Positions 1-33,670 of a stretch of 64,000 nt of DNA are shown here, piece after piece (position 1 is the first letter of the stretch; every line of letters starts with the position of its first letter). The position numbers were made by a program, and so were the translations under genes. Origin of the DNA: Linum tenue (taxonomy: Eukaryota > Streptophyta > Magnoliopsida > Malpighiales > Linaceae). The DNA lies in assembly GCA_946122785.1 (NCBI GenBank), contig CAMGYJ010000010.1, positions 46,025,134 to 46,089,133 of the forward strand, given 5' to 3'. The notes under the pieces are model-generated. The model was not told the origin of the DNA. It worked only from the letters and a program-made list of their open reading frames with translations, and searched no databases.

Positions 1-215
1 GTCTCCAACTCTCGTAGCTCCGCCTCGTGCTTTTCGCTTAGCACCCTCCATCTCTTTTAACTTCGCATCTTGTTCTTCCTGTCTCCTCCCTCGACTTGTG
101 CAAGACATAAGTCCTATTCCTTTCTTACTCTCCATTTTACCAATGCTTTCGACTCCTCGTACTTCTCCTCGTTCACTCCTCTCATCTCATCGGCTGCTTC
201 TCCTGATTTGACATG
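1..215 (-). pseudogene. Degenerate coiled-coil relic of the array family
   Basis: Read on the minus strand, this stretch contains pieces of the charged coil seen in the intact neighbours, for example GVNEEKYEES (compare GVSKEKYEEL) and LSEKHEAELRELE (compare ASEKHEEELRKSR). The pieces lie in different frames with stops between them, and no N- or C-terminal domain is visible. It is probably the end of another decayed family member, cut by the window edge or by decay. Confidence 0.6.
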
Positions 216-396
216 GTTTACTTACATACAAACCGCTGCGATAAAACAAAAAATGACAGTTTTATACCAACCAACACAAAGAAATTAAATTCCAAAATAT
301 GAAATAAAAAGTGATTTTTATTGAATGCAGTTTCCATTGTGACAAAATCTATATAATAAAAATAAAAAAAAAGTGCAAAACCAACCCAGCCTGCGA

Positions 397-2313
397 TTAG
401 TCTCGATACATGAAAGCAAGCTTGAATTCGCCGTTCAAATAAATCATGAAGAAAATCGTGTTTGTCAACATAACAGACACCCTACGAATTGGAAGCCGGG
501 TAGGATAACCTCTGAAGCCAGGAGTATAGCTCTCATCCCCGTCGTAATATGCCAACATGATATCGCCGCCATCCGGATGGGATATCTTCACAAACCACCA
601 GTTGCTACGGTCGAATGATTCGTTGCTCATAAAACATATATCAATTCTAGGGGGAGCCGGCCAATCTTTGGTGTCTTCATCCACCACTTGAACTGAAATG
701 TTTCCCTGAAAGAAACCCGTGAAGTCCGCCGTCATATTGTTCTCATAATAGTATACAGATTTCATACTACCGGTGGACCAAGTATTTGGTGGCACCGCCC
801 GTCTTTTGCTTTTATGGACTACCCAATCATTGGTGTACTGTGTCGTAGGTGGGTGCGCCCACGATTGCTTCCGACGTTGCTCCAGCTCAAGTTGCTCCAG
901 CTGGTCGCTCAGCCTTCTCGTTTCAGCTGCATTCTCTTTCGTCGTTTCTTCCTGCTCTTTCTTCAGCTTTTCGAGCTCGGCATCCTTTTCGTTGATCAAC
1001 CTCTGCAATGATTCATCTTTGTTCTTTCGCTCACTTTCGAGCACTTTTGCCATCTCCTCCTCCTTCTTTGCTGCTTTACCCGCTTCATCATCCCTAGTCC
1101 TTCTCAGAGTTTCTACCTCCTCTCTCAATTTTTTTAGTTCCTCGTCCTGCTCTTTGCTCGACTTTGCTCCCTCTTTTGTTTCTCTTTGCAATGCCTCTAT
1201 TTCTTCATCTTTCTCCTTTCTCCCCATTTCTATCTTTTCTTGCATTTCCTCTCTTAGCTTTCGCAATTCCTCGACCTTCTCCTTCCTCAAATTTTGCAAG
1301 TCGTCGCTCGCCCTTTTGAGCGTCTGCTGCACGCCGTCGTTTCTCTTCAACTGCTTTTGCACCTCGTCCTTTTCCTTTCTCGACTTTCGCAGCTCCTCCT
1401 CGTGCTTTTCGCTTGCATCCTCCATCTCCTCTTTTAGCTTTCGTATTTCCCCATCTTTTTCATCCCTAAGTTTTTGTAGATCTTCTTCCGACTCCTCCCT
1501 CAGCTTCTCTAGCTCCTCGTCCTTCTCTCTGGCCATCCTTTTCAACCCCTCGTATTTCTCTTTGCTCACCCCTTCGGACATCATCGGTTTCGGACGCTTC
1601 GCCTCATCCCTTTGTCTCTTCACCTTTCGTAGCTCCGCGTCTTTCTTTTCGATCGTCTCTTCCATCTCTTCTCTTAGCTTTTGTAGCTCTTCTTCTTTTT
1701 TCTCCGTTAATTTTTGTATCTCGTCTTCCATTTCGTTGGTTACCTTCTCCAGCTCCTCATCCTTCTTGCTCAACATCCTTTTCAACTCTTCATACTTCTC
1801 TTTGCTCACCCCACCTCCCACCATCAGTTGCTTTGATATTTTCTTTTTCCTTGACACGGTGTACTTCAACTCCAACCGCGACCACATGGTAATCCTCACC
1901 AACTCAATCCCGTGATTGGCCCAGCTGAAGAGATCGTTCAATCGGAGATAGTGAGCCTCAGAGTCTCTGTGCTCTCCCAGCTCAGTCACGTCTTGAAAGC
2001 AATACCCTCCAGGGTTCACAATCAGACCCGACCGAGTGAGGTGTCGGGCTAGCTTGGTGAGGGCTTCCTGTCCCTCGATCTTCCCATGGCCATCGAAAAA
2101 CAACAGCCCGTCGTAGTACTGCTCTTCCGCCAAGTCTTTGTCGTCTCCATTATCATCACTATCGAGGATGATGATGGTGCCAACTTCCTTCCAATGAGTC
2201 TTTCGGATATAGGAAGGGTGAATAGTAGGATCGCTCAACTCACATACTCTAATGGCGGTTTCGTCAGAGGAGGTAACGAAGTGTTTGTCTGACTTGAAAT
2301 CAAAGAAAACCAT
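397..2313 (-). CDS. Array family member A: coiled-coil protein, 638 aa, unknown function
   Basis: Single-exon gene starting at the ATG that all family members share (MVFFDFKSDKHF) and ending in the shared AFMYRD terminus. Residues 1 to about 165 form a conserved N-terminal domain with YYDGLLFFDGHGKIEGQEAL, an acidic stretch of about 15 residues before it, and LRLNDLFSW. Residues from about 170 to 480 are a Glu/Lys/Leu-rich coiled coil with the module GVSKEKYE.LKR....KDEELEK present twice. The last 140 or so residues are a second conserved domain with VPPNTWS, VVDEDTKDWPAPP, NWWFVK and MLAYYDGD. No signal peptide or membrane segment is visible. I do not recognise the family. The upstream region differs from that of members B to E, so its expression may differ. 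The frame is intact, so it may be functional. Confidence 0.85.
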   Translation of the reverse strand: MVFFDFKSDKHFVTSSDETAIRVCELSDPTIHPSYIRKTHWKEVGTIIILDSDDNGDDKDLAEEQYYDGLLFFDGHGKIEGQEALTKLARHLTRSGLIVNPGGYCFQDVTELGEHRDSEAHYLRLNDLFSWANHGIELVRITMWSRLELKYTVSRKKKISKQLMVGGGVSKEKYEELKRMLSKKDEELEKVTNEMEDEIQKLTEKKEEELQKLREEMEETIEKKDAELRKVKRQRDEAKRPKPMMSEGVSKEKYEGLKRMAREKDEELEKLREESEEDLQKLRDEKDGEIRKLKEEMEDASEKHEEELRKSRKEKDEVQKQLKRNDGVQQTLKRASDDLQNLRKEKVEELRKLREEMQEKIEMGRKEKDEEIEALQRETKEGAKSSKEQDEELKKLREEVETLRRTRDDEAGKAAKKEEEMAKVLESERKNKDESLQRLINEKDAELEKLKKEQEETTKENAAETRRLSDQLEQLELEQRRKQSWAHPPTTQYTNDWVVHKSKRRAVPPNTWSTGSMKSVYYYENNMTADFTGFFQGNISVQVVDEDTKDWPAPPRIDICFMSNESFDRSNWWFVKISHPDGGDIMLAYYDGDESYTPGFRGYPTRLPIRRVSVMLTNTIFFMIYLNGEFKLAFMYRD

Positions 2314-3288: not shown

Positions 3289-5649
3289 TTAATCCCGATA
3301 CATGAAAGCAAGCTTGATTTCGCCAAACAAATGAACCATGAAGAAACTTGCGCTTGTGTATATACTACAGCTCCTAGGAAACGGAAACCTGGTAGTATAA
3401 CCCCTGTAGCCGTCACTATAGCTTCGATCGCCGTCGTAATACGCCAACATAGCAAGGCCGCCGCCGCCGTCCTGATCCGGATGTTCCATCTTCACAAACC
3501 ACCAGTTGTTCTTGTCGAATGTCTGCTCCATCCCAGTATATACACAAATCGAAGGAGGAGCCGGCCAATCTTTCGTGTCATCGTCCACCACGTGCACGTT
3601 GAAATTCCCGTACGAGAACGCCCAGCAGTCCGGCGACCTCATACCATTCTCGTGGCCGTAGAAGATGCCGCTCTGCTTGGACCAAGTATTTGGTGGCACC
3701 GGCCGTCTTCTGCTCTTGTGGGCCGTCTCGTGATCGGCGGTGATGTACTTCGTCGTAGGTAAGCGCGTCCACGATTGCTTCCGACGTCGTTGCTCGGCCT
3801 CGTGTTGCGACAGCTGGTCCCTCAGCTTTCTCGTTTCTTCGTCTTTCTCCTTTCTGGCCTTTTCTATATCCTCTTGCATTTCCTCTCTTAGCTTTCGCAT
3901 TTCCTCGGCCTTCTCCTTGCTCGGCTTCTTTTGCATATCGTCGCTTTCCCTTTTGAGCGTCGGTTGCACGCCAGCGGTTATCTTCAACCGATTTTGCAGA
4001 TCGTTCTTTTCCTTTCTCGACTTACGCGGCTCCTCCTCGTTCTTTTCGCTTGCAATATCCTCCATCTCCTCTTTTAACTTTTGTATTTCCCGATCTTTTT
4101 CGTCTCTCAGCTTTTGTAGATCTTCTTCCGACTCCTCCCTCAGCTTCTCTAGCTCCTCGTCCTTCTCTCTCACGATCCTTTTCAACCCCTCGTACTTCTC
4201 TTTGCTCACTCCTTCGGGCACCGGTTTCAGACGCTTCGCATCATCCCTTTGCCTCTTCACCTTTCGTAGCTCCACGTCTTTCTTTTCAATTGTATCTTCC
4301 ATCTCTCCCCTCAACTGTTGTAGCTCTTCTTCCTTTTCCTCTCTCAATTTTTGTAGATCTTCTTCAGACTCCTCCCTCAACTTCTCTAGCTCCTCGTCCT
4401 TCTCTTTGACGACCCTTTTCAACCCCTCGTATTTCTCTTTGCTCACGCCTTCGGGCATCGGTTTCGGACGCTTCGCGTCATCCCTTTGCCTCTTCACCTT
4501 CCTTAGCTCCGCGTCTTTCTTTTCAATCGTCTCTTCCATCTCTTCTCGCAACTTTTGTAGCTCTTCTTCTTTTTCCTTCTTTAATTTTTGTATTTCATCT
4601 TCCATTTCGTTGGTTACCTTCTCCACCTCCTCATCCTTCTTGCTCAACATCCTTTTCAACTCTTCATACTTCTCTTTGCTCACCCCACTGCCAACCATTG
4701 GTTGCTTTGAGATTTTCTTCTGCCTTGGCACGATGTATTTCAACTCTTCTTTCTTTTCAATCGTCTCTTCCATCTCTTCTCTCAACTTTTGTAGCTCTTA
4801 TTCTTTTTCCTCCTTTAATTTTTGTATTTCATCTTCCATTTCGTTGGTTACCTTCTCCAGCTCCTCATCCTTCTTCCTCAACATCCTTTTGAACTCTTCA
4901 TACTTCTCTTTGCTCACCCCACCGCCAACCATTGGTTGCTTTGAGATTTTCTTCTGCCTTGGCATGATGTACTTCAACTCTTCTTTCTTTTCAATCGTCT
5001 CTTCCATCTCTTCTCGCAACTTTTGTAGCTCTTCTTCTTTTGCCTCCTTTAATTTTTGTATTTCATCTTCCATTTCGTTGGTTACCTTCTCTAGCTCCTC
5101 ATCCTTCTTGCTCAACATCCTTTTCAACTCTTCATACTTCTCTTTGCTCACCCCACCGCCAACCATCGGTTGCTTTGAGATTTTCTTCTGCCTTGGCACG
5201 ATGTACTTCAACTCCAACCGCGGCCACATGGTGATCCTTGCCAACTCAACACCGTGACTTGCCCAACTGAAGAGATCGTTTAATCGGAAATAGTGAAACC
5301 CAAAGTCTTTGTGCTCTCCCAGCTCAGTCACGTCTTCAAAGCAATACCCTCCAGGGTTCACCATCAGACCCGACCGAGTGAGGTGATGGGCTAGCCTGGT
5401 GAGGGATTCACGTCCCTCAATCTTCCCATGGCCATCGAAAAACAGCAACCCATCATAGTACTGATCTTCTTCCAGGTCATCGTCACCATTATCGTCACCA
5501 TCGACGATGATGGTGCCAACTTCCTTCCAGTGAGCCTTTCGGATATAGGAAGGGTGAATAGTAGGTTTGCTCAACTCACAGACTCTAATGGTGGTTTCAT
5601 CAGAGGAGGTAACAAAGTGTTTGTCTGATTTGAAATCAAAGAGAACCAT
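3289..5649 (-). pseudogene. Array family member B: longest coil, interrupted by an in-frame stop
   Basis: The same frame runs from the family ATG at 5649 to the family terminus AFMYRD at 3289, 787 codons including one internal TAA at 4798-4800. The stop falls at a Glu position (KEEKE-stop-ELQKL), which looks like a single GAA to TAA change. As it stands the gene would give a 283-aa product with the N-terminal domain and two coil modules; the downstream 498-codon ORF keeps three more modules and the complete C-terminal domain. Five copies of the GVSKEKYE module occur in total, the most in the array, three of them from a 234-bp tandem repeat. Both end domains look well preserved, so the stop may be recent, a sequencing error, or an allele. 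I call it a pseudogene with moderate confidence. Confidence 0.7.
4516..5217 (-). repeat. Three tandem copies of a 234-bp coding unit
   Basis: The start of the motif accat(t/c)ggttgctttgag recurs at 4694, 4928 and 5162, exactly 234 bp apart. Each unit encodes 78 residues: a KYI.PRQKKISKQPMVG linker, then the VSKEKYEE.KRML.KKDEE coil module. The unit carries the last residues of the N-terminal domain (ELKYIVPRQKK) into the coil. The length keeps the frame. The middle unit bears the stop at 4798-4800 near its border with the distal unit. Confidence 0.85.
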
Positions 5650-5750
5650 GTTTGCTAGCCAGTGGGAGCCTAGGATAGGAGGGATAGATAGATGAGAATT
5701 GAGATGGGGTGATATGTTTGTGTTTGGGTGATGTATCTATATATAATGCC
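5650..5750 (-). promoter_or_regulatory. Putative core promoter of member B
   Basis: On the minus strand a TATATATAG box (5737-5745) lies about 90 bp upstream of the ATG at 5649. The block between box and ATG is recognisably shared with the same interval of members C, D and E (a GATA-rich patch, gagaattgagatgggg read on the plus strand, then tgatatgttt). Position and conservation suggest a core promoter with a short 5' UTR; this is inference. Confidence 0.5.
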
Positions 5751-6730: not shown

Positions 6731-6732
6731 TA

Positions 6733-8662: not shown

Positions 8663-10474
8663 CTATAGTGAGTCCCGATAGTGGAAAGCCAGCTTGAATT
8701 CGCCAAACAATTCAATCATGAAGAAAACTGTGCTTGCTGATATAAAAGTGCCCTTACCAAATGCAATCCGGGTAGTACGGCCGTTACCGTTGTTGGTAGC
8801 AGTGTAGCTTCGATCACCGTCGTAATATGCTAGCATGGTATGGCCGCCATCCTGTTGTCGCTGTACCTTCACAAACCACCAGTTGTTCTGGTCGAATGCT
8901 ACATTTCCCCCACACTGTACATGAATCGTGGAGCTGGGAGCCGACCAATCTTTGGTGTCTTCATCCACCACAAGGACAGAACCTCTTTCAAGGAACCCCA
9001 TGAAGTCCGAGTTCTTATTGTTCTCATAAAGGTATGTGAAACCCCAACCATTGACGGACCAAGTACTTGGTGGCACCGCCCGTCTCCTGCTTTTGTGGAC
9101 TGTGGGATCAGTGGTGTACTTCGTCGTCGTAGGTAGCCGCATCCATGATCGCTCCCGACGCAATGCTCCGTCGTCCTTGTTGTTCTTTCGCTCATTTTTT
9201 GGCACTTTTTCAATCTCTTCCTCCTTCTTCGTCGCTTTACCTGCTTCGTCGTCCCTAGACCTTCTCAGAGTTTCTACTTCATCCCTCAATTCTTTAAGTT
9301 CCTCTTCCTGCTCTTTGCTCGGCTTTGCTCCCTCGTCTTTTCCTCTTCGCAATGTCTCCGCCACTTCTTCGTCTTTCTCCTTTCTCGCCTTTTCCGTCTC
9401 CTCTTGCATTTCCTCTCTTAGCTTTCGCAATTCCTCGGCCTTCTCCTTCCTCGGCTTTTGCAAATCGTCGCTCCCCACTTTGAGCGTGTGCTGCACGTCA
9501 TCGTTTTTCTTCAACTGCTTTTGCAGCTCGTCCTTTTCCTTTCTCGACTTTCGCAACTCCTCCTCGTGCTTGTCGCTCGCATCCTCCATCTCCTCTTTTA
9601 ACTTTCTTATTTCCCCATCTTTTTCATCCCTCAGCTTTTGTAGATCTTCTTCCAACTCCTCCCTCAGCTTCTCTAGCTCCTCGTCCTTCTCTCTGGCCAT
9701 CCTTTTCAACCCCTCGTATTTCTCTTTGCTCACTCCTTCGGACATCATCGGTTTCGGACGCTTCGCCTCGTCCCTTTGCCTCTTCACCTTTCGTAGCTCC
9801 ACGTCTTTCTTTTCAATCGTCTCTTCCATCTCTTCTCGTAGCTTTTGTAGCTCTTCTTCTTTTTCTTCCTTTAATTTCTGTATCTCGTCTTCCATTTCGT
9901 TGGCTACATTCTCCAGCTCCTCATCCTTCTTGCTCAACATCCTTTTCAACTCTTCATACTTCTCTTTGCTCACCCCACCGCCAACCATTGGTTGCTTTGA
10001 TATTTTCTTCTGTCTTGGCACGATGTACTTCAACTCCAACCGCGGCCACATGGTGATCCTCGGCAACTCAACACCGTGACTGGTCCAGTTGAAGAGATCA
10101 TTCAATCGAAAGTAGTGAGCGCCAAAGTCTCTATGCTCTCCCAGCTCAGTCACGTCTTGAAAGCAATACCCTCCAGGGCTCACCATTAACCCCGACCGAG
10201 TGAGGTGTCGGGCTAGCTTGGTGAGGGCTTCCTGTCCCTCGATCTTCCCATGGCCATCGAAAAACAACAGCCCGTCGTAGTACTGCTCTTCTGCCAAGTC
10301 GTCGTCGTCTCCATTATCATCACTAACGATGATGATGTTGCCAACTTCCCTCCAATGAGTCTTTCGGATATAGGAAGGGTGAATAGTAGGATCAGTCAAC
10401 TCACAGACTTTAATGGTGGTTTCGTCAGAGGAGGTAACGAAGTGTTTGTCCGACTTGAAATCAAAGAGAACCAT
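8663..10474 (-). CDS. Array family member C: coiled-coil protein, 603 aa, unknown function
   Basis: Intact single-exon member. It starts with the family N-terminus (MVLFDFKSDKHFVTSSDE), has the acidic SDDNGDDDDLAEEQ stretch and the GLLFFDGHGK core. A coil runs from about residue 170 to 455, with two VSKEKYE modules. It ends with the C-terminal domain (VPPSTWS, VVDEDTKDW, NWWFVK, MLAYYDGD). The terminus is AFHYRDSL, two residues longer than in the sisters. A TATA-like box lies about 100 bp upstream. Its upstream flank (10475-11320 plus 13746-14965) is duplicated upstream of member D, so C and D came from one segmental duplication. Function unknown; a cytoplasmic or nuclear structural or scaffold role is only a guess from the coil. 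Confidence 0.85.
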   Translation of the reverse strand: MVLFDFKSDKHFVTSSDETTIKVCELTDPTIHPSYIRKTHWREVGNIIIVSDDNGDDDDLAEEQYYDGLLFFDGHGKIEGQEALTKLARHLTRSGLMVSPGGYCFQDVTELGEHRDFGAHYFRLNDLFNWTSHGVELPRITMWPRLELKYIVPRQKKISKQPMVGGGVSKEKYEELKRMLSKKDEELENVANEMEDEIQKLKEEKEEELQKLREEMEETIEKKDVELRKVKRQRDEAKRPKPMMSEGVSKEKYEGLKRMAREKDEELEKLREELEEDLQKLRDEKDGEIRKLKEEMEDASDKHEEELRKSRKEKDELQKQLKKNDDVQHTLKVGSDDLQKPRKEKAEELRKLREEMQEETEKARKEKDEEVAETLRRGKDEGAKPSKEQEEELKELRDEVETLRRSRDDEAGKATKKEEEIEKVPKNERKNNKDDGALRRERSWMRLPTTTKYTTDPTVHKSRRRAVPPSTWSVNGWGFTYLYENNKNSDFMGFLERGSVLVVDEDTKDWSAPSSTIHVQCGGNVAFDQNNWWFVKVQRQQDGGHTMLAYYDGDRSYTATNNGNGRTTRIAFGKGTFISASTVFFMIELFGEFKLAFHYRDSL

Positions 10475-11923: not shown

Positions 11924-13041
11924 GGAAAAAATCCCAAGTTACACATGTTTTTAAAAAACAATTCTCAAAATACACACGTTATGAAAATAATTCCCAATCT
12001 ACGTTAGTTTGGGCCATCACCGCTGTCGACGAAGACAGTGATTGCATCACTGTTGTCGACGATTGCATCACCGCTGTCGACGAAGACAGTGATTGCATCA
12101 CCGCTGTCGACGAAGACAGTGATTGCATCACTGCAGTACACGGCCGCGGTGAAGGCCTGACCTGCGTCGAAACTTTAAACAAACGTAACTTTGTGCTCGG
12201 TTATCCGATCGTAGCGAAATTTTTTTTGATTCCGCATAATTTTTCGAGATCTTGCAAGCCGCAAATTGACGTAGGCGGTTTGGTCCCGCCTTCGTCTCGA
12301 AAATATGTCGTTTGCTACCCCGAACGAGCCTTTTTTCGATTTCGTCAAACTTTGAACGACCATAACTTTGTGCTCCACAATCCGAAAATCATGAATTTTT
12401 TTTTATTTCGCATAACTTTTTAAGGACTACAATTTGTATCATAGACATATTTTCGGAATGTACTTGGATTCCTGAAAAGGAAGGTAAAGTTATTCCCAAA
12501 ATCTCTTATATCCATAAATAATTCATTTTTTGAAAATTCTCTCCTACTAAATATTGTAGTCCTTAAAAAGTTATGCGAAATCTAAAAAAAATTCATGATT
12601 TTCGGATTGTGGAGCACAAAGTTATGGTCATTCAAAGTTTGACGAAATCAAAAAAAGGCTCGTTCGAGGTAGCAAACGACATATTTTCGAGACGAAGGCG
12701 GGACCACACCGCCTAAGGCAATTTGCGGCTTGTAATATCTCGAAAAATTATGCGGAATCAAAAAAAATTTCGCTACGATCGAATAACCGAGCCCAAAGTT
12801 ACGTTTGTTTAAAGTTTCGACGCAGGTCAGGCTTTCACCGCGGCCGTGTACTGCAGTGATGCAATCACTGTCTTCGTCGACAGCGGTGATGCAATCACTG
12901 TCTTCGTCGACAGCGGTGATGCAATCACTGTCTTCGTCGACAGCGGTGATGGCCCAAACTAACGTAGATTGGGAATTATTTTTATAACTTGTGTATTTTG
13001 AGAATTTTTTTAAAAAACATGTGTAACTTGAGATTTTTTCC
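11924..13041. mobile_element. Foldback Mutator-like element, 9-bp TSD
   Basis: Two arms of about 500 bp (11924 to about 12436, and about 12550 to 13041) are inverted copies of each other. The ends read GGAAAAAATCCCAAGTTACA at the left and the complement of GGAAAAAATCTCAAGTTACA at the right. Both sides are flanked by CCATTTTCT (11915-11923 and 13042-13050). A 9-bp TSD with long TIRs fits Mutator-like foldback elements. About 115 bp of spacer separates the arms, and no transposase is present. Confidence 0.8.
12014..12135. repeat. 30-bp minisatellite in each foldback arm
   Basis: The unit containing caccgctgtcgacgaagaca is repeated about four times in the left arm, one copy shortened by 9 bp. 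The inverted counterpart lies at about 12858-12955 with three full copies. The two arms therefore differ in array structure, showing slippage after the arms formed. Confidence 0.8.
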
Positions 13042-14323
13042 CCATTTTCTGCTCTCTCTCTCTCTTCCCCCTTTACCTTCCTTCCTCTTCTGGAACAGAA
13101 CAATTAAAGTGATAAGAACATCTCTTTGATTCAATCAAGCAATCACCGATGAGGAAGGTAAGAAATAAATTTTAGAAACTCTCTATGCAGATTATGGTGA
13201 GAAGCCCTCTCCGCTCACCTTTCCTTTTACCGATCGGGGCTCTCCACCCAATTGCAGGATCTACTATCCAGAAACGCAGAACTATAAGAAGCTCTCCCCT
13301 GCCTCATCATTCGACCACAAACAACAAATTCCAAGCAGCACTTCCCCACTGTTGGCTTTGGTGTTGCTGCATGCAGCTCTAACGCCAAGGAATCATAGAA
13401 CTCGCAGATTTCCTTCTCCTCTTTCCTCTTGATCTATCTTTCGAGACCAGAGAGATTTGTCCCAATAGCTGAACAGAGTCTTGGTCGTGGCGATTAGGCT
13501 CAAAATGTAATTCAAGTGGACAAACAACAAGAAGAGGAAGAAGATCAATGTTGTCCTTCCGAGTTCGTCGAGAGAACGCGCTCTCAAAATCCAAAGTCGC
13601 GCTCTCATGAAAAGTAGTTCGCGGTTTTTTGACGAACTCCCGAAAAATCGCGTTTTGGCGATTTGGAGCGGGGACGTGAAGGGCAGAGGGGCGAATTGGG
13701 TGACCTAACCCCAGACTGGTGTACGTCAGGCGTATACTATACGTCAGGTGAAATTCGGGTACCACATACCTCTAGTATGAAAACGCTATCTAGATCTCGA
13801 ATTAGCAGAATTTTTGGACATGATACTATACTCTAGCCCTTAATGAGTGAACAATAGGTCCTAATTATCTAAATCATAAACTATAAACCCTATGATGGTG
13901 TGTTCATTTTTTGCCTATATTTGGACGAATCACAAACGTTGATGATTGTTTCTAATTAAATTGATCTTGGGGTATAAGATTTAGAGAATTAAGACTTAGA
14001 TTTTGATCTTGAAGGGTGAGAGTATAATATCATGTCCGAAGATCAGTCAATTCTAGGTTTGGATAACGTTTTCATACTCAAGGTATGTTGTACCCAAGAT
14101 TTCACCCTGGGTACCGTAGAACTCGCCATATATGTATGAAGGGTGAATAGTAGGGCCTCTCAAGAGTCCAGTCTCTTGGCATCTCTAGAGACAAAACATC
14201 TTATTCGTGCATTTTTTTCTTCCATTTCATCATGTAAATTTGAGCTTATTCATGCCACACTGGCTTTATTCACACAACCAATAATGTTTAGTCACGCAAC
14301 ATTGTGTTTATTCACGTGCATAT

Positions 14324-14601
14324 TGTAACATCTCGAACCTTTTTTTGACAAGATACTGTCCGCTTTGGGCCTCTACATTCGCACGGATTTCGATTTGGGG
14401 TGCAATTCACGGTGATTTCCCATAAGGTCACCCATCCTTGTTGTACTCCACACTGAACACGTTTAACTTCAGATCGAGTTCTCACAAGAACTCCTCCAGT
14501 TCACCCCAAAACACGTCTTATCAGTTAAGGTCGGTTTCCTACTTATGAACCATGGATCTCTCCCGTGCTTTGTCGATGTGGGATTTGCCTAAGGTGTTAC
14601 A
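14324..14601 (-). mobile_element. Cassandra TRIM solo LTR carrying a 5S rRNA-derived segment
   Basis: The 278-bp element starts TGTAACA and ends TGTTACA and is flanked by the 5-bp duplication CATAT (14319-14323 and 14602-14606). On the minus strand it contains words of plant 5S rRNA: GAACTCGATCTGAAGTTAAA (5S: GAACTCCGAAGTTAAG) and GGATGGGTGACCTTATGGGA (5S: GGATGGGTGACCTCCTGGGA). LTRs carrying 5S rRNA sequence are the hallmark of Cassandra elements. No second LTR is adjacent, so it is a solo LTR. Confidence 0.85.
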
Positions 14602-14783
14602 CATATTGTTATTTATTCATGCCGTTATAAAATCAAATTTTTACAACTTTCAAAATAGATGTCATTGTGTAGAAGATTATGATCAGTGCAACACATTTTT
14701 ACAGAAATTAATTGAAAATCCCAAATTTAATTTCGCAAAATATAGCCAATAAAAATTATCAGGGGGAAAAAGTGTGAATTTCC

Positions 14784-14965
14784 TTATAGGCGCGAGTAAC
14801 TTACACTCTTACATGAATAAGCAAGCATAGTATTACGTGATGAATAAACAAATAAACCAGGCAATGGCATATTTGAGCAAACATAATCGGGGTAACCATT
14901 GGGGCTCGTTAAACAGCTCCGATCCCCGTCGTAATATGCCAACATCGTCAGGCCAACTCGATGGT
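14784..14965 (-). pseudogene. Relic of the family C-terminal domain, copy 1
   Basis: The minus strand reads GLTMLAYYDGDRSCLTSPNG and then a diverged tail ending AYSCK, aligning with the last 60 or so residues of members A to E (MLAYYDGDRSY, PIPRNC, LAFMYRD). No upstream part of the gene remains. The same relic is present in the partner copy near 20.1 kb, so it predates the segmental duplication. Confidence 0.7.
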
Positions 14966-17115: not shown

Positions 17116-18090
17116 CTAGTCTCGATAGAGGAAAGCAAGCCTGTACTCGCCAAACAAATAAACCATGAACAAACTCGTGCTTGTCCACACACTGCAGTTC
17201 CTAGGAATCGGAAACCGAGCAGCAGAACCTCTGTAGCCATCAGCACTATATCTTTGATCCCCGTCGTAATACGCCAGCATCGTCAGGCCGCCATCTGGAT
17301 GGACGATCTTCACAAACCACCAGTCGTTTTGGTCGAATGGTTCACCGCCCTCACAATACATAAGAATCATGGAGGGAGCCGACCAGTTCTTGGTGTCTTC
17401 ATCCACCACTCGAACTTTGAAGCCTCCCCCAAAGAACGGCAGGAAGTCCGCCTTCACATCGCTCATGTAAAAGTACGTGGAAGCTGATATGTCGTCCGAC
17501 CAAGTATTTGGCGGCACCGGTCGTCTCCTGCTTCTGTGGACCATCTCATCATTGGTCGTCGTGGGTAAAGGCGGCTGCGGCGTCCTCCTCCATGATTGCT
17601 TTGATGTTTTCTTCTGCCCTCCTGGCAATACGGTGGTGTACTTCAACTCCAAGCGCTGCCACGCGGTGTTCCTCGCCATGGCAACACCATGGCGAGGCCA
17701 GCTGAAGAGATCGTTCAATCGAAGGTAGTGAGCCCCAGAGTCTCTGTGCTCGCCCAGTTCAGTCACGTCTTGAAAGCAGTACCCTCCAGGGCTCACCATC
17801 AGACCCGACTGACTGAGGTGTCGGGCTAGCTTGGTGAGGGCTTCCTGTCCCTCGATCTTCCCATGGCCATCGAAAAACAACAGCCCGTCGTAGTACTGCT
17901 CTTCTGCCAAGTCGTCGTTGTCGTCTCCATTGTTGTCAGTGTCGACGATGATGGTGCCAACTTCCTTCCAGTGAGTCTTTCGGATATAGGAAGGGTGAAT
18001 AGTAGGGTCGTTCAACTGACACACTCTAATGGCTGTTTCATCGGAGGAGGTAACAAAGTGTTTGTCCGACTTGAAATCGAAGAGAACCAT
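17116..18090 (-). CDS. Array family member D: coil-less short form, 324 aa
   Basis: Intact single-exon member with the complete N-terminal domain (MVLFDFKSDKHF to WQRLELKYT, about 165 residues) and the complete C-terminal domain (RRRPVPPNTWSDD to LAFLYRD), joined by only about 40 residues. The coil is absent. The join reads QKKTSKQSWRRTP, where the sisters have KKISKQ before the coil and RRKQSW after it, so the coil was lost precisely between two KQ-coding stretches. The shared upstream region pairs it with member C. If expressed, it would act without oligomerisation through the long coil, or compete with the long forms; this is inference. Confidence 0.85.
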   Translation of the reverse strand: MVLFDFKSDKHFVTSSDETAIRVCQLNDPTIHPSYIRKTHWKEVGTIIVDTDNNGDDNDDLAEEQYYDGLLFFDGHGKIEGQEALTKLARHLSQSGLMVSPGGYCFQDVTELGEHRDSGAHYLRLNDLFSWPRHGVAMARNTAWQRLELKYTTVLPGGQKKTSKQSWRRTPQPPLPTTTNDEMVHRSRRRPVPPNTWSDDISASTYFYMSDVKADFLPFFGGGFKVRVVDEDTKNWSAPSMILMYCEGGEPFDQNDWWFVKIVHPDGGLTMLAYYDGDQRYSADGYRGSAARFPIPRNCSVWTSTSLFMVYLFGEYRLAFLYRD

Positions 18091-18190: not shown

Positions 18191-19496
18191 TCAATGTTTG
18201 TGTTCGTCTTGGTTAAGTTTCTTGGCAATTTGCATTTGATTGGTTATTCTGACCGCAGCAATGACGATCGATCACGCTAGTACGTAGAAAGAAACACAAA
18301 GGATTAAGAAAGAGACTTGTGTTTGTCATATAGAAGGAATTATGTTTCTTTGATAAAATAACATTATTTACAAATTCAGTCTTTCAAAATGAGAAAGTAA
18401 GATTATCTACGAATTCAAAATTTTCAGTAGTTCAAAAAAAATTTGAACTATTGAACCATGTTTCTATTAACTAGATAAATTTCTGGAGAGTCTTTCTTTT
18501 ATTTGATGAATAATAGTATGGAGAGTCTTTGTTAATTATAATGGTGAGAGTCTTTTGTCTTGAATCTTGATGAATAATTAGTATAAGTAGATCGAGTCTT
18601 TGTTTAATTGGAAGGGAGAGTCTTTGTCTTGATGAGTAATTATTAAATATAAGAATATTGAGTTTTCGTTTAATTATAAGGAGAGTCTTTGTATTTTCTC
18701 ATAATGAATGACTACAAGAAGATTGCGTCTTTGTTTGATTACAAGGAAAGATATTGTGTTTTGTCTTAATGAATAATTATGGTTTGGGTTAGGTTACAAA
18801 ACCTTATAGTTTTATAATACTACAGAATCATAATGTGTCAAAGTCCTACCATCGTTTAGAAAATAGAGAAATATATATTGCCTTTTACAGTATCACGGGT
18901 GAAATTCGGGGTATCACATACCTCTAGTATGAAAACGCTATCTAGATCTCGAATTAGCGGAATTTTTGGACATGATATTATACCCTAGACCTTAATGAGT
19001 GAACCATAGGTCCTAATTATCTAAATCATAAACTATAAACCCTATGATGGTGTGTTCATTTTTTGCCTATATTTGGACGAATCACAAACGTCAATGATTG
19101 TTTCTAATTAAATTGATTTTGGGGTATAAGATTTAGAGAATTAAGGCCTAGATTTTGATCTTGAAGGGTGAGAGTATAATATCATGTCTGAAAGATCAGT
19201 CAATTCAAGGTCTGGATAACGTTTTCATACTCAGGGTATGTTGTGCCCAAGATTTCACCCTAGGTACCGTAGAACTCGCCATATATGTATGAAGGGTGAA
19301 TAGTAGGGCCTCTCAGGAGTCTAGTCTCTTGGCATCTCTAGAGACAAAACATCTTATTCGTGCATTTTTTCTCCCATTTCATCACGTAAATTTGAGCTTA
19401 TTCACGCCACACTGGCTTTATTCACGTAAGAGTATTAATTATTCATACAACCAATACTGTTTAGTCACGCAACATGGTGTTTATTCACGTGCATAT

Positions 19497-19862
19497 TGTA
19501 ACATCCCGAACCTTTTTCCGACAAGATATTGTCCGCTTTGGGCCTCTACATCCACAAGGATTTCGATTTGGGGTGCAATTCAGGGTGACTATCCCGAACC
19601 TTTTTCCGACAAGATACCGTGCGCTTTGGGCCTCTACATCCGCACGGATTTCGATTTGGGGTGCAATTCAGGGTGACATCCCATAAGATCACCCATCCTT
19701 GTTGTACTCCACACTGAGCACGTTTAACTTCAGATCGAGTTCTCACAAGAACTCCTCCATTTCACCCCAAAACGTGTCTTATCAGTTAAGGTCGGTTTCC
19801 TACTTATGAGCCATGGATCTCTCCCGTGCTTTGTCGATGTGGGATTTTCCTAAGGTGTTACA
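19497..19862 (-). mobile_element. Cassandra solo LTR, copy 2, with an 88-bp internal duplication
   Basis: Same element, same CATAT target duplication (19492-19496, 19863-19867) and same flanks as the copy at 14324, so one insertion was copied by the segmental duplication. It is 366 bp rather than 278 bp because 88 bp (19504-19591) are repeated in tandem at 19592-19679. The repeated part covers the LTR end and the 5S-derived TGAATTGCACCCC end. Confidence 0.85.
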
Positions 19863-20039
19863 CATATTGTTATTTATTCATGCCGTTGTAAAATCAAATT
19901 TTTACAACTTTCAAAATAGATGTCATTGTGTAGAAGATTATGATCAGTGCAACACATTTTTATAGGAATTAATTGAGAATCCCAAATTTAATTCCGTAGA
20001 ATATAGCCAATAAAAATTATTAGGGGAAAAAAGTGTGAA

Positions 20040-20225
20040 TTTCTTTATAGGCGCGAGTAACTTACACGCTTACATGAATAAGCAAGCATAGTATTACGTG
20101 ATGAATAAACAAATAAACCAGGCATAATGGCATATTTGAGCAAACATAATCGGGGTAACCATTGGGGCTCGTTAAATAGCTCTGATCCCCGTCGTAATAT
20201 GCCAACATCGTCAGGCCAACTCAGA
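20040..20225 (-). pseudogene. Relic of the family C-terminal domain, copy 2
   Basis: Duplicate of the relic near 14.8-14.96 kb; the minus strand again contains LTMLAYYDGD. It is broken, with no N-terminal part. Confidence 0.65.
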
Positions 20226-22888: not shown

Positions 22889-24574
22889 CTAGTCCCGATA
22901 CATGAAAGCAAGCTTGAATTCACCAAACAAATAAATCATGAAAAAAATCTTGCTTGCCCACGTTATAGTGCCCCTACCAAATGCAAGGCGGGTAGGGTAA
23001 CCTCTGAAGCCGGTAGTATAGTTCCGATCCCCGTCGTAATATGCCAACATAGTCAGGCGACCGCCATCCGTCGGATGGACCATCTTCACAAACCACCAGT
23101 TGTTCCTGTCGAATGCTTCACTCTCCCAAGAGAATACGGTAATTTTAGGGGGAGCCGGCCAATCTCTGGTGTCTTCGTCCACCACTTGAAGGTTCAAAAT
23201 TCCTTGAAAGAAACCACAGAAGTCCGCCTTCATGTTGTTCTCGTAACGGTAGATCATGTAACTATCCTGTTCGCTGGACCAAGTAGTTGGCGGCACCGCC
23301 CGTCTTCTTCTTTTGTGGACGGCCTCGTCGGTGGTGACTTGTGTCGTAGGTAGCCGGGTCCATCTCAGAGTTTCTACTTCATCCCTCGGTTTCTTTAGTT
23401 CCTCGTCCGGCTCTCTGCTCGGGTTGGCTCCCTCGTCTTTTTCTCTTTCCCATGCCTCCACTTCTTCTTCGTATTTCTTCTTTCTCGCCTTTTCTATCTC
23501 CTCTTGCATTTCCTCTCTCAGCTTTCGCAATTCCTCGGCCTTCTCCTTCCTCAGCTTTTGCAAGTCGTCGCTCCCCCTTTTGATCAGCGTCTGTTGCACG
23601 CCATCGTTTTTCTTCAACTGCTTCTGCATCTCGTCCCTTTCCTTTCTCAACTTTCGAAACTCCTCCTCGTGTTTTTCGCTTGCGTCCTCCATCTCCTCTT
23701 TTAGCTTTCGTATTTCTTCGTCTTTTTCATCCCTCAGCTTTTGCAGATCTTCTTCCGAATCCTCCCTCATCTTCTCTAGCTCCTCGTCCCTCTCCCTCAA
23801 TATCCTTCTCAACCCCTCGTATTTCTCTTTGCTCACCCCTTCGGTCATTGGTTTCGGCCGCTTCTCCTCGTCCTTTCGTCTGTTCGCCTTTCGTAGCTCC
23901 ATGTCTTTCTTTTCAATAGTCTCTTCCATCTCTTCTCTTAGCTTTTGTAGCTCTTCTTCTTTGTTCTCCCTCAATTTTTGTATCTCGTCTTCCATTTCGT
24001 TGATTGCCTTCTCCAACTCCTCATCCTTCTTGTTCAATATCCTTTTCAACTCCTCGTACTTCTCTTTACTTACCCCGCCACCTACCGTCGGCTGCTTTGA
24101 TATTTTCCGTTTCCTTGGTATTGTGTACTTCAACTCCAGACGCTGCCAACTGGTGATCCTCGCCAAATCAACACCATGACGAGGCCAGCTGAAGAGATCG
24201 TTCAATCGGAGGTAGTGAACTCCCAATTCTTTGTGCTCTCCCAGCTCAGTCACGTCTTGAAAGCAGTACCCTCCAGGGCTCACCATAAGACCCGACCGAG
24301 TGAGGTGTTGGGCTAGCTTGGTGAGGGCTTCCTGTCCATCGATCTTCCCATGGCCATCGAAAAACAACAGCCCGTCATAGTACTGCTCCTCCGCCAGGTC
24401 GTCATCATCTCCGTTATCGTCACTATCGACGATGATGGTGCCAACTTCCTTCCAATGAGCCTTTCGGATATAGGAAGGGTGAATAGTGAGATCTCTCAAC
24501 TCACAGACTCTAATTGTGGTTTCATCAGAGGAGGTAACGAAGTGTTTGTCTGACTTGAAATCAAAGAGAACCAT
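22889..24574 (-). CDS. Array family member E: coiled-coil protein, 561 aa, unknown function
   Basis: Intact single-exon member with the family start (MVLFDFKSDKHF), acidic stretch, GLLFFDGHGKIDGQEAL, LRLNDLFSW, and a coil from about residue 170 to 400 with two VSKEKYE modules. Its C-terminal domain has VPPTTWS, VVDEDTRDW, NWWFVK, MLAYYDGD and LAFMYRD. The distal coil is shorter than in A and C: DEVETLR is joined directly to WTRLPTT, so roughly 40-100 codons present in the sisters are missing. A TATA-like box lies about 100 bp upstream. A (GATA)n tract follows the ATG on the upstream side. Function unknown. Confidence 0.85.
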   Translation of the reverse strand: MVLFDFKSDKHFVTSSDETTIRVCELRDLTIHPSYIRKAHWKEVGTIIVDSDDNGDDDDLAEEQYYDGLLFFDGHGKIDGQEALTKLAQHLTRSGLMVSPGGYCFQDVTELGEHKELGVHYLRLNDLFSWPRHGVDLARITSWQRLELKYTIPRKRKISKQPTVGGGVSKEKYEELKRILNKKDEELEKAINEMEDEIQKLRENKEEELQKLREEMEETIEKKDMELRKANRRKDEEKRPKPMTEGVSKEKYEGLRRILRERDEELEKMREDSEEDLQKLRDEKDEEIRKLKEEMEDASEKHEEEFRKLRKERDEMQKQLKKNDGVQQTLIKRGSDDLQKLRKEKAEELRKLREEMQEEIEKARKKKYEEEVEAWEREKDEGANPSREPDEELKKPRDEVETLRWTRLPTTQVTTDEAVHKRRRRAVPPTTWSSEQDSYMIYRYENNMKADFCGFFQGILNLQVVDEDTRDWPAPPKITVFSWESEAFDRNNWWFVKMVHPTDGGRLTMLAYYDGDRNYTTGFRGYPTRLAFGRGTITWASKIFFMIYLFGEFKLAFMYRD

Positions 24575-27949: not shown

Positions 27950-28135
27950 TAATTTATTAAATATAGTTTTAGATGTTCTTAAACGTTCTGGGTATTAAAA
28001 AGTATTTAAAATTTTGGGTTGGATGGAAAAGTAGACGGATGCACATTTTGGTGACTTTAATGGTACCCGACGCCTTATTCAAACTTAAGTGGTATGTCTA
28101 CCCCAATTCTGAAAGTTAAGTGGCACCCGAGATAT
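27950..28135. mobile_element. Truncated copy of the 25.1-kb TIR element
   Basis: About 185 bp match the right end of 25105-26211 (ttttgggttggatggaaaa, gacggatgcacattttggtg, cttattcaaacttaagtggt), ending in atattttaccct. The left part is missing. Confidence 0.75.
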
Positions 28136-29002
28136 TTTACCCTAAAACCAGTGGCAAATTTAGAAAATACAATATTCGGTAAAGCCTTAGTCCTCTCTCT
28201 CCAATTACCAAGATTCGCATTAGCTTCCTCTCATTCAAATTTATGGCTCCGCCACCGATATTTGATAGTATATACAATTATGTTATGATGATATGAAAGG
28301 ATACTATGATAGTTCGAATATATTGTAGTCTTAATAATGGTTGTATCTATACTTGTATTGTATTATAGATGATATGAGTGTCTGATCAACCACACTGGTC
28401 GCTCAAGTCTTTATTTATTTATCTCAATTGCGTTGAGTATTAGGGTTATTGGCTTAGTAAACGCCAAAAATAATTAAAAATGACTGCAATTTACTATTTA
28501 TTAATCAAAGTCGTTATTATTGTTTTTGTAAGGCCCGTGTTTCCAAAGAAACTTATAATGCAACTAATTTCATTATTTCGATGGTTGACTCGTCTTACTA
28601 TAAATTTAATCCTGCAAATTTATACTTGGCCTATCAATATTATCACTAAATTTCGACACTCCTATATATTGATATGGTGGGCACGTTACAAATTATGCAA
28701 GTATCCCTCACCTACATCTCACCTTGTTACCGAATTAACATCCCAATCTTCCACCAGGCATCAAGATCGATCGATCGATCTTATGGCTCTCTTTGATTTC
28801 AAGTCAGACAAGCACTTCGTTGCGAGTTTTTTCCAATAATAGCACCCTAAAAAAAAAATTACAAAACTAGCACACATATGAAAAAATTGACACAAATAGC
28901 ACCTATATTTATGGAACGCACCTCCAAGATGCGTTTTATAAGTAAACCGCACTTGAAGGATGCGGTTTACATATAAACCGCATCTTGGAGGCGCGGTCTC
29001 CG

Positions 29003-29884
29003 TTACGAAACGCATGCCAGCAATGCGATCCGCGCCAGCTGCGGAACGGTTTTCAAGCCGTTGGATGGAGGCGCGATCGGGCGGCTGAACGCTTGCCAGG
29101 GGAGCGATCCACGGTCAGGAGCCACATCATGATCATTATCTGAATTTGAATCTGGTGCTGAATCATCAGCACCTTCAAGAGGGTCTGAGCTGTCTGCACT
29201 GACGTTGTTCTCTCCTTCTTCATCAGAGGGGTCGCTGACTGGTCCTGGTGTGGCAGCCTCCGTATGATCCTGCTCATGAAAGGCACCTGCATCAGCTCCA
29301 TAATGGTAGTTGTGAAAACTACCGCTGCCTGTCAGGAAGTTGTACTGGGCTTGGTTGGGGATGTCCGGTTGAACTTCTTCTTCATATGACGAGAAAGATT
29401 GATGATGGCCTGCACCTTGCCCTCCATCTTGGTACTGAAAATAGGAATGAGGATCATGGTAACTTTGGTAGGGATGATCGTCATATAATTCACCACCACC
29501 ATGGATACCAGATGTTTGACCGTGTCCAGAATGACCTCCAACACTAACGGCTGGCTCGGTGTAAACGAACATCTCGGCTTTGGCCAACTTGTTGGACCTC
29601 AAGAATTCGAGCATGGAATCTACGTCATCTTGAGTGGTTATGGTATATTCCTCATGCCACAATGACCCAGTTGCTCTGTTTGGGTATCGGTACACCATAC
29701 GATCTACCCTCCTCGTGCCATCCATGCAAGTAACGTCAGTGCATATTCGATGGAGGTCTTCAAGCTTCGGTCTGGTACCGACCGTTATTTTCTGAAAATT
29801 GCCACCGACGTAGGTGGCCCCCTTTCCGGTGTCTTCCGTGTAACCATTCCACCGTAAGCCAAGCAACAACTGACGGAATGCCAT
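29003..29884 (-). CDS. ORF inside the MULE, resembling the N-terminal part of MuDR-type proteins
   Basis: About 293 codons from the ATG that directly follows a splice-acceptor-like TTTGTGTGCAG. Residues 1-110 or so (FRQLLLGLRWNGYTED, VDRMVYRYPNR, TQDDVDSMLEFLRS, KAEMFVYTEP) resemble the N-terminal region found ahead of the catalytic domain in plant MuDR-type transposases. The rest is low-complexity (Gly/His/Tyr, then Asp/Ser-rich acidic). The reading frame ends in the element's repeat-rich border. No zinc knuckle or catalytic triad is present. Most likely a truncated transposase gene; this assignment is by resemblance only. Confidence 0.5.
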   Translation of the reverse strand: MAFRQLLLGLRWNGYTEDTGKGATYVGGNFQKITVGTRPKLEDLHRICTDVTCMDGTRRVDRMVYRYPNRATGSLWHEEYTITTQDDVDSMLEFLRSNKLAKAEMFVYTEPAVSVGGHSGHGQTSGIHGGGELYDDHPYQSYHDPHSYFQYQDGGQGAGHHQSFSSYEEEVQPDIPNQAQYNFLTGSGSFHNYHYGADAGAFHEQDHTEAATPGPVSDPSDEEGENNVSADSSDPLEGADDSAPDSNSDNDHDVAPDRGSLPWQAFSRPIAPPSNGLKTVPQLARIALLACVS

Positions 29885-29943
29885 CTGCACACAAACAAAC
29901 CATAGTTTTAGTTAATATCATAAAAATCACAGATCACAAATAA

Positions 29944-30163
29944 CAATAAAAAGTAACACAAAATAAACTTACGAGTTAATGTTAATGCAATAAAAAGTAA
30001 CACAAATTAAAGTTACGAGTTAATGTTAATGCAATAAAAAGTAACACAAAATAAAGTTACGAGTTAATGTTAATGGCATAAAAAGTAACACAAAATAAAG
30101 TTACGAGTTAATGTTAATGGCATAAAAAGTAACACAAAATAAACTTACGAGTTGATCTTAATG
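29944..30163. repeat. Five tandem copies of a 44-bp unit
   Basis: The unit starting ataaaaagtaacacaaa and containing ttacgagttaatgttaatg is repeated five times at 44-bp spacing (first two starts at 29944 and 29988) with few differences. It lies just upstream of the MULE ORF, in what would be its 5' intron. Confidence 0.85.
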
Positions 30164-30264
30164 GCAAACACACTAAATAAATATAGATATACAACAGAAA
30201 AATGAAAGAGAGAATGAGAGGTGTGAAGAGTTGAGGTTTTCCGGCAAGTCTTATATAGGGAAAA

Positions 30265-30650
30265 AATTGTGAAAACCGCACCTCTAGGGTGCGGTTTTAG
30301 TCTGCATGCAGCCCTACGTCCATAATCCTCTGCATGGTGTGTCGGGTGTCGGAAAATTATTGACATGTAAACCGCACTTGGGGGGTGCGGTCTACATGTC
30401 AAAACCGCACCTTAGAGATGCGGTTTGTTCTTGAACGCAGAAACCGCATCTCTAAGGTGCGGTTTAGGTAGGTCAGGCCTAAACCGCACCTCGGCCATGC
30501 GTTTCATGTAGGCCAGACATGAAACCGCATGGCCCAGATGCGGTTTAGGCCCACAATTATTGACCGCACCCTCCAGATGCGGTTTACATTTAAAACGCAC
30601 CTGGGGGATGCGTTTTATATGTAAACCGCACCTGGAGGGTGCGGTCAATA
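30265..30650. repeat. Clustered aaaccgca/tgcggttt palindromes in the MULE border
   Basis: At least ten short inverted or direct copies of the pattern aaaccgcac-ct-n-ggtgcggttt lie here, with three more at the other end (28917-29000). Each is a small hairpin of about 25-30 bp with a variable loop. Sub-terminal repeats like these often bind transposase; that role is inference. Confidence 0.75.
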
Positions 30651-31975
30651 AAAAAAGGTGCTAGTTTTGTAAATATTTTTGGGCGGGTGCTAGTTTTGTA
30701 ATTTTTTTTTTTTAAGGTGCTATTTCTGGAAAAAACTCCTTCGTTGCTTCCTCCGACAAAACTACCCTCAAAGTCTACGAGCTGACCAACCCCACCATCC
30801 ATCCTTCCCACATCAGAAAGACCCATTGGAGGGAAGTCGCCACCATCGCTCCTGCTCCAGATCGCGATGGTGGCGACGCCGCCCACGAAGTCACGAAGAC
30901 GAGGAGGAGAAGTCTTACAACGGGCTGATGTTCTTTGATGGTCACGGGAAGATCGAGGGACAGGAGGCGTTGACCAAGCTAGCCCAACACCTCACCCGGC
31001 TGCAGTTGAGGGTGAGCCCCCAGGGGCACAGTTTTCAAGACGTCGAGTTGGGAGAACACAAAGACTTTGGAATTCACTATCTCCGACTGAACGATCTTTT
31101 CAACTGGCCGGATCACGGGGTGGGCATGGCGGGCGTTAGCATGTGGCAACGCCTCGTGCTGAAGTACACCGTACCGAAACGGGAGAAGCGGGCGGTGGCG
31201 GCGGCGAGCGGAGGGGTGAGCAAGGAGAAGTACGAGGATTTGAAGAAGACGGTGAACAAGAAGGACGAGGAGTTGAGAAAGCTGAGGGCGGAGATGGAAG
31301 AACAAGAGAAGGAGATACAAACGTTGAGAGATGAGAGGGACGATACAACCGAACAGCAGGAGGCGGAGATACGAGAGCTGGAGAAGGAAAAAGACGAGGA
31401 GATCGGGGAGCTGATGAAGAGGAAAGACGACGAGTTACGAATGCTGAAAAAGAGGAAGGACAAGGAGATACAAACGTTAAAGGAAGAGAGGGAGGAAGCA
31501 AGTGAACGGCACGAGGAGGAGCTGCGGAAGGTGGAGGAGGAAAAGGACGAGGAGCTGAGAGTGATGATGAAGAGGAAAGACGACGAGTTGCAGATGCTGC
31601 AAAAGAGGAACGACGAGGAGTCGAAGCAAAAGAACGATGAATTGAAGACGCTGAAGAGAGAAAAAGAGGATGGAGCCAAGCTGAGCAAAGAGAAGGATGA
31701 GGAGGAGGTAAAAACATTGAGGGAAGAAGTGGTGAATTTGAGAAAGGCTAACAAAGAAAACGAAGCTGCTGCTGGGAAAGGGAAAATACTGGTGAATGGT
31801 GATGAATGGCACAAGTTGAAGAATGATAACGAAGCACTGCGAAAGTCGATGAACGAGAAGGATGCCGAAACGCGCAAGCTAAGGGACCAAGTGGCTCAAC
31901 TTCAAGAGCAGGAGCAACGTCGCAACCAACCATGGGCATGGACGGGTGCGATACGGTTCCTCGGCGAGTACGTAG

Positions 31976-32883
31976 TGTTGAGAGAAGCAAATCGATGCCA
32001 GCCTGTATAGCCTTGAGGATTGGCAACAGCAAAAAGAAAGAAATTGATTGCGTGATTCAGGAGGATTCAAGGCAATATGGAAATAGAAGGAAATGAAATC
32101 TTGCCGGGAATGAATGCAGCATATTTGGCAAGTCAAGATTTCCCTTCAACGGCTCTGGTGTACCACTATAAGGAGGAGTCTGATTGAGTCGTGATAGAAG
32201 TTTTTCCCTTGTGATTCTGATAGAGAAAAAGTCATAGCGTGTGAAGCTAGAGTCTTTTAGAAGCAATCAGTAGTGCTATTCAGGGTGATTAGCTGGGAAA
32301 ACCGGGGTGTTTGTTCAGGAAGATTGTTTATCAATAGCGAGCGTGGTAGAACTGCTGGGAGCAGAGTAGAAGCTTGCCGAGTCCTGTAAAACACCGAGAC
32401 ACAGATATAGTGCTTACGCAGGAGATCTCAAGAGGAGAGTCTCCTACCGTGGATTAGTCGATATTGGGATCCTCATTCTCCCAATATCGGATACCACGTA
32501 AAAATTCGGTTTGTGTGTGTGAATGAGTTTGAATTTGATATTTGCACTTTGTTGTTAGCTAACTCTGTTTTGCAGGAACAGAGTTCTGGGAAGAAGTCTT
32601 CACTTCACCACGAAGAAGAAGACTCAGTGTTGTGGGCTTAAACTTCTGGCCCAAGTTGATTTGTTTAAGTCACTGCTGCATTTTAGATATAAAGCCCAAT
32701 TCGGCCCGTTTCACTAACAGATTAAAGTTTGAGAACCTTGGAATCAAAATACATCTTCTTCCTCTTACTGAATATTTCCATCACTCGATTCTTTCACTTG
32801 ATCTGAGATTGCAGTTTTAGGGTTTATCCGAAGGAGAAACAACCGAAGAAAAATCTCATCGTCTCGCGCTCAACGATCCATCA
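31976..32883. mobile_element. 908-bp solo LTR inserted in member F, 5-bp TSD
   Basis: Starts TGTTGAGAGAAGC, ends GATCCATCA, and is flanked by CGTAG on both sides (31971-31975 and 32884-32888). Removing the element and one CGTAG rejoins the family frame as EYVVRTTRRPVP, matching the sisters' VVHKSRRRPVP. There is no internal region, primer site or second LTR, so it is a solo LTR left by recombination. Confidence 0.85.
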
Positions 32884-33670
32884 CGTAGTACGCACAACAA
32901 GACGGCCGGTGCCACAGGATACTTGGCGCAGTGTCAAGATTGAATCGCCGCCTGACTGTCATTATGTTTATGATCCAAGTACCAACGAGAGCACCTCGCC
33001 ATTTCCGATGGCAAATTGGTTGGTGGTGGATGAAGAACACAATGAATGGCCTCTTCCTCCTAAGATCGGCGTGCGCTGTGTGCCTGACCAATTCGACAAA
33101 GATAACTGGTGGTTCGTGAAGGCAGCCCACCCAGATGGCCGCTTGGCGATGATGGCTTATTACGACGGCGGCCGGAGTTCTTACACTACCCCGAACTATC
33201 GGTTCCCTGTCCGGCTTCCCTTTCCGAGGAACTGCAAATTTTACACAACTACACAGTTCTTCCTGATTGGGCTGAACGGCGCCAACAAGCTTGCTTTCTC
33301 GTACCGGGACTAGCTTAAGGGAAGATCGAGGGCTGGCTATAGTTTCTAAACTAGTTTCAGAATCATTTCGATCATTCAGACTCGTTTCGAAATGATTTTA
33401 ATCCTGCAAATGTGAACCTGGTATAGCAATATCGTTACTAATTCGCAAATATATATATATCGATTGTGCTATGGAAGTTTGCTTGCACACCTGCAGAATG
33501 CAAACCAGGTTCAGGACAATGCTGATTACAGGGAAGATATAGATGCGGAGTGCACTGCATCGTATTGCAGAGAGTTCTATCCAGAAACAAAATCATGGAA
33601 ATTTCACGAACTCAAAAAGGGTGACGAATAACACAACCAAGCTTTCATTCTAGAGGTCCGAAAAACTAAC

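What the first reader, a model, noticed from the sequence alone, without database searches (positions are those of the whole stretch)
1..33313. Undescribed clustered gene family: conserved ends, elastic coiled-coil middle
Seen: at least six related intronless genes in 33 kb plus three relics, all sharing MV(L/F)FDFKSDKHF at the start, GLLFFDGHGKI.GQEAL in the N-terminal domain, and NWWFVK...MLAYYDGD in the C-terminal domain, while the central Glu/Lys coil ranges from none to more than 400 residues. I cannot match either end domain to a named family. Inference: the two end domains are the functional parts and the coil sets spacing or oligomer state. Clusters with many dead and re-assorted copies are typical of genes under diversifying or dosage selection, such as defence, reproduction or selfish functions.
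Basis: partly seen in the sequence, partly recalled or inferred. Interest (0 to 1): 0.85.

Follow-up and report, generated by a model that had tools for sequence, protein, structure and literature searches.

The report
Flax-genus genes with fast-evolving tails
A wild flax chromosome carries a cluster of six related, so far unnamed genes, two of them broken, whose front part stays nearly constant while the tail changes fast, a pattern often seen in genes that recognise something changeable, though their job is not known.

Summary
In 33 kb lie six loci of one family: four intact single-ORF copies (A, C, D, E), one with an in-frame stop (B), one cut by a 1.9-kb Mutator-like insertion and a frameshift (F), plus two short C-terminal relics. 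All 172 relatives listed by three protein searches are Linum (window: L. tenue); unlisted rows went unseen. Neither end matched Pfam above its cut-off; PDB matches by sequence or fold were only weak. The C-terminal part is predicted as a confident beta-rich domain; the N-terminal model is poor. The 5' half looks exchanged between neighbours: A's C-domain pairs with an L. trigynum protein, but its N-domain is slightly closer to neighbour C. The coil grows by 78-80-residue tandem units, 0 to 5 per copy. Best reading: a constant module joined by an adjustable rod to a diversifying binding module, probably for recognition (defence or reproduction). That function is inference; no expression data were available.

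The parts
397..2313 (-). Copy A: intact 638-aa ORF. N-domain 1861-2313, coil with two unit starts, C-domain 400-816
3289..5649 (-). Copy B: one frame with one in-frame TAA near 4798 (ORFs 4798-5649 and 3289-4773), five coil unit starts; N-domain 5203-5649, C-domain 3292-3720
4097..5214 (-). Tandem coil-unit arrays of copy B: 234-bp unit x3.0 at 96% matches (4514-5214) and 237-bp unit x2.5 at 84% (4097-4683)
8663..10474 (-). Copy C: intact 603-aa ORF, two coil unit starts; N-domain 10025-10474, C-domain 8672-9097
14889..14951 (-). Relic of a C-domain (21 residues)
   Evidence: E 7e-5
17116..18090 (-). Copy D: intact 324-aa ORF without coil; N-domain 17638-18090, C-domain 17119-17538
20080..20217 (-). 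Relic of a C-domain (about 45 residues)
   Evidence: E 2e-5 to 2e-4
22889..24574 (-). Copy E: intact 561-aa ORF, two coil unit starts; N-domain 24125-24574, C-domain 22892-23317
28783..33313 (+). Copy F: broken copy in opposite orientation; start 28783, N-domain resumes 30740 with a frameshift, coil ORF to 32010, C-domain 32891-33310
28824..30738 (.). Insertion in copy F: about 175-bp terminal inverted repeats (77% identical) and a 9-bp target duplication (28815-28823 and 30739-30747); called Mutator-like from this anatomy (the rule is recalled, no element family was matched)

Best explanation
This is a multi-copy gene family of the genus Linum. Each protein is a constant N-terminal module (about 150 aa), a helical E/K-rich rod whose length changes by gain and loss of 78-80-residue units, and a fast-evolving beta-rich C-terminal module (about 140 aa). 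Shown here: the anatomy, the rate difference between the ends, the tandem units, and differing 5' and 3' histories that suggest exchange or gene conversion of the 5' half between neighbours. Inferred: the C-domain binds a changing partner, the N-domain does the shared job (assembly or signalling), the rod sets reach, and the cluster stores binding variants, as in plant recognition gene clusters. Defence recognition is my first guess (about 0.35), a reproductive or conflict role second (about 0.2).
For: dN/dS in the N-domain is 0.17-0.40 in 10 of 10 pairs among A-E, and in the C-domain 0.42-0.81 in 10 of 10 pairs; dS is lower in the N-domain in 10 of 10 pairs, for A-C 0.157 against 0.421. C-domain windows reach about 1.0 in three stretches. 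Across 60 non-redundant relatives the C-domain is less alike than the N-domain in 1745 of 1770 pairs, mean identity 0.36 against 0.63. A and L. trigynum P0002: C-domain 0.849, N 0.830; A and neighbour C: C-domain 0.561, N 0.868. Site patterns differ between 5' and 3' in A, C, E (p 1.4e-4). Pieces of the 600-bp upstream flanks align for all six pairs among B, C, D, E, while 3' flanks align in none of the ten pairs of A-E. Tandem units. C-domain model with 10-residue block pLDDT of 78-93 over residues 221-324.
Against: No expression, localisation, partner or phenotype is known. No window shows dN/dS clearly above 1, so the faster change could be relaxed constraint. Third positions alone give only p 0.046. 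The pairing of A with P0002 rests on one L. trigynum protein, N identities differ little (0.868 and 0.830), and the N-tree forks that join A, C and P0002 are weakly supported (84/49 and 85/0). The mosaic pairs seen among relatives (15 pairs) could be gene-model chimaeras. Two of six copies are broken, so part of the cluster is decaying.
Confidence: 0.4

Rival explanations
1. Structural or housekeeping helical-rod family (cytoskeletal or storage-like) in which mainly the rod and N-domain matter; the C-domain is loosely constrained and drifts.
For: C-domain dN/dS 0.42-0.81 fits relaxed constraint; rod length is tolerant, 0 to 5 units.
Against: A C-terminal core (F252 D253 W257 W258 Y275 G277 in D numbering) is invariant in 59 aligned sequences, and all four intact copies keep the C-domain, so it is under real constraint. 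Copy D lacks the rod but keeps both ends in an open frame.
Confidence: 0.25
2. Selfish or conflict genes (killer-like drivers, or a supergene-linked role in this genus with distyly) that expand by duplication and decay quickly.
For: Copies on at least seven L. tenue contigs, broken copies, and only Linum among the listed hits.
Against: No poison-antidote arrangement was seen, and linkage to the S-locus was not tested. A word search of one Linum distyly paper (PMC12371154) found no laminin, coiled, unknown function, uncharacterized or tandem; that is weak evidence.
Confidence: 0.15
3. Gene copies spread as cargo or remnants of a transposable element, with no host function.
For: Copies on several contigs; single-ORF genes; a Mutator-like insertion in F shows active elements nearby.
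Against: Purifying selection on the N-domain; no transposase domain in the copies; shared upstream DNA of B-E looks like local duplication. The copies' surroundings were not examined exhaustively for element termini.
Confidence: 0.08

Closest known systems
G8GJ78_LINUS, an uncharacterised L. usitatissimum protein, and unnamed L. tenue, L. trigynum, L. perenne and L. grandiflorum proteins
   Same: Same N-domain, coil and C-domain order; members of the same family
   Different: None carries a described function in the tables; some are called laminin or Plec, which I take to be naming by the coil alone
Plant MATH and coiled-coil proteins (RTM3-like; recalled, not fetched)
   Same: Clustered plant genes joining a beta domain to a coil; possible way of working
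   Different: No Pfam MATH match at E up to 1
Plant NLR clusters (recalled)
   Same: Clustered copies, relics, exchange between neighbours, a variable recognition end
   Different: No NB-ARC or LRR match at E up to 1

Membership tests
MATH and coiled-coil (RTM3-like) | MATH domain | tested here: not met
   No Pfam MATH hit at E up to 1 in the 7 family ORFs given, nor in 17 members of alignment A3. By sequence only; the fold comparison was inconclusive.
NLR immune receptors | NB-ARC and LRR domains | tested here: not met
   No such Pfam hit at E up to 1
WD40 proteins | Repeated WD40 blades | tested here: not met
   No Pfam WD40 hit at E up to 1; only a 25-residue weak profile match to a polyadenylation factor chain (recalled as a WD40 protein), E 0.31
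Myosin, laminin, plectin or other long coiled-coil proteins | Their domains beyond the coil | tested here: not met
   Window ORFs: only sub-threshold matches, all within the coil; PDB profile hits to such proteins are coil-only and weak
Linum family of G8GJ78 | Shared N- and C-domains at significant E-value | tested here: met
   P0044, E 4.6e-66 and 1.5e-121; both domains align
Distyly S-locus genes | Location in the S-locus | not tested
   Position of the window in the chromosome is not known

The most novel reading that the evidence does not exclude
A genus-restricted recognition system with unassigned folds at both ends, in which conversion keeps a shared 5' signalling half uniform while the 3' binding half is left to diversify, and unit-wise rod changes tune its reach.
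Probability: 0.18. Interest if true: 0.8.

Novelty: new variant of a known kind. Interest (0 to 1): 0.5.

Why it matters
If the C-domains recognise something, Linum has a recognition repertoire built on none of the domains matched here, in a genus that includes a crop (flax) and models of distyly. It also offers a natural case of one gene half being homogenised while the other diversifies. If not, it is still an uncharacterised multi-copy family that annotation sometimes calls laminin.

Full report
What is there. Translation and tblastn of the window show six loci of one family between 397 and 33313. A, C, D and E are single open frames of 638, 603, 324 and 561 codons. B is one frame with a single in-frame TAA. 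F lies on the other strand and is broken: after about 14 codons it is interrupted by an insertion with inverted terminal repeats and a 9-bp target duplication, then it shifts frame, and its C-domain is separated from its coil ORF by 0.8-0.9 kb. Two C-terminal relics lie in two blocks that are 92-95% identical to each other.

Where it is. The hits place the copies on a contig of 53,513,329 bases that also carries named Linum tenue proteins, so the window is taken as L. tenue. Three protein searches found 140 proteins (E up to 0.01), 247 (E up to 0.1, only the 7,996 candidates sharing most words scored) and 230 (E up to 1); each listed only its best 120. The union of listed ids is 172; four are the window's own (P0001, P0021, P0151, P0159) and the other 168 bear Linum names (tenue, trigynum, perenne, grandiflorum, usitatissimum). 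The unlisted rows were not seen, so absence outside Linum is not shown.

Domains. Pfam gives no hit to either end in the seven family ORFs, only sub-threshold matches inside the coil, and only single stray matches in 17 coil-free members, best E 0.0055; NCBIfam likewise. PDB sequence searches gave nothing significant. A model of D with 59 sequences has mean pLDDT 70.8; 10-residue blocks from residue 221 to the end average 78-93, with many beta strands, while residues 109-129 and 134-171 are under 50. The first 50 residues had block means of 70-81 there, but the N-domain modelled alone gave mean pLDDT 45.6, so its fold is unresolved and no statement on its novelty is made. Foldseek and VIA-align gave no convincing relative for the C-part. 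Invariant residues across 59 sequences include G69 F72 F73 D74 G75 in the N-domain and F252 D253 W257 W258 Y275 G277 in the C-domain.

Coil. Tandem Repeats Finder shows 234- and 237-bp units in B, one array at 96% matches. Counting the SKEKYE unit start gives 2, 5, 2, 0, 2 and 1 in A-F, spaced 78-80 residues where there are two or more (F only over its 30928-32010 ORF). In 40 relatives with coils of 180 residues or more, 34 had the strongest shuffle support (rounded p 0.01); their strongest hydrophobic period has median 3.59. Of the 34, 18 lie at 3.57-3.64, 6 at 3.65-3.70, 7 at 3.55, 1 at 3.74, 1 at 3.46 and 1 at the heptad value (3.47-3.53). So the rod is mostly not a plain heptad coil; no known heptad coil was run as a control.

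Selection. By Nei-Gojobori counts, all 10 pairs among A-E (broken B included) give dN/dS 0.17-0.40 in the N-domain and 0.42-0.81 in the C-domain. Twenty-codon windows in the C-domain reach 0.99, 1.02 and 1.03 and fall to 0.18 around MLAYYDGD. Two N-domain windows also reach 0.96 and 0.84, on few synonymous changes (pS 0.05 and 0.11). Positive selection is therefore not demonstrated. In 60 non-redundant relatives C is less conserved than N in 1745 of 1770 pairs.

Mosaic history. Trees of the two ends differ. A's C-domain pairs with L. trigynum P0002 (100/98 support), so these C-domain lineages seem to predate the species split. A's N-domain is slightly closer to neighbour C (0.868) than to P0002 (0.830); the N-tree forks joining A, C and P0002 are weak (84/49, 85/0). 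Among A, C and E, shared-site patterns (A-C, A-E, C-E) favour A-C in the 5' part (99, 54, 52) and A-E in the C-domain (35, 59, 31), p 1.4e-4; third positions alone give p 0.046. dS is lower in the N-domain than in the C-domain for all ten pairs. Pieces of upstream DNA align among B, C, D and E; A shows no match to those, but shares upstream DNA with F (2322-2513 and 28610-28422, 77.7%); 3' flanks align in none of ten pairs. Gene conversion or exchange of the 5' half is the simplest reading; selection on both ends adds to the contrast.

Mechanism. A constant module, a rod of adjustable length and a variable module fit a recognition protein whose binding end varies. The step from pattern to function is inference. 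Relaxed constraint on the C-domain is the main rival.

Novelty. The listings of eight paper searches show no paper that I could recognise as being on this family, within an open-licence library only. Genus-restricted clustered families with constant and variable parts are a known kind (recalled); this one has unassigned domains and an unusual rod.

Noticed in passing
window 12061-12926: Large near-perfect palindrome: arms 12061-12403 and 12584-12926, 97% complementary, 180 nt between; could fold into a long hairpin.
   Followed up: partly
window 13747-14959 and 18898-20222: Duplicated block (pieces 92% and 95% identical) that carries the C-domain relics.
   Followed up: partly
window 29003-29884: 293-aa ORF inside the insertion in copy F, no Pfam match; presumably a protein or remnant of the element.
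   Followed up: partly
window 33671-33988 and 34561-34944: Two B3 DNA-binding domain matches (minus strand) next to the cluster.
   Followed up: partly
window 48253-49026, 50128-50676, 58565-59587, 43442-43861: Ordinary neighbours: NF-YB-like histone fold, succinate dehydrogenase membrane subunit, IMP dehydrogenase, ABC1 kinase-like fragment.
   Followed up: partly
window 50811-50931: snoR86 H/ACA snoRNA on the minus strand.
   Followed up: no
P0051 group (LINGRAHAP2_LOCUS8140): Fifteen protein models with the same C-end from one locus tag differ in the acid-rich N-domain loop and in coil length: either real splicing inside repeats or an annotation artefact.
   Followed up: partly
window 51222-51682 and 51722-52215: Direct duplication of about 0.5 kb at 85% identity.
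   Followed up: no
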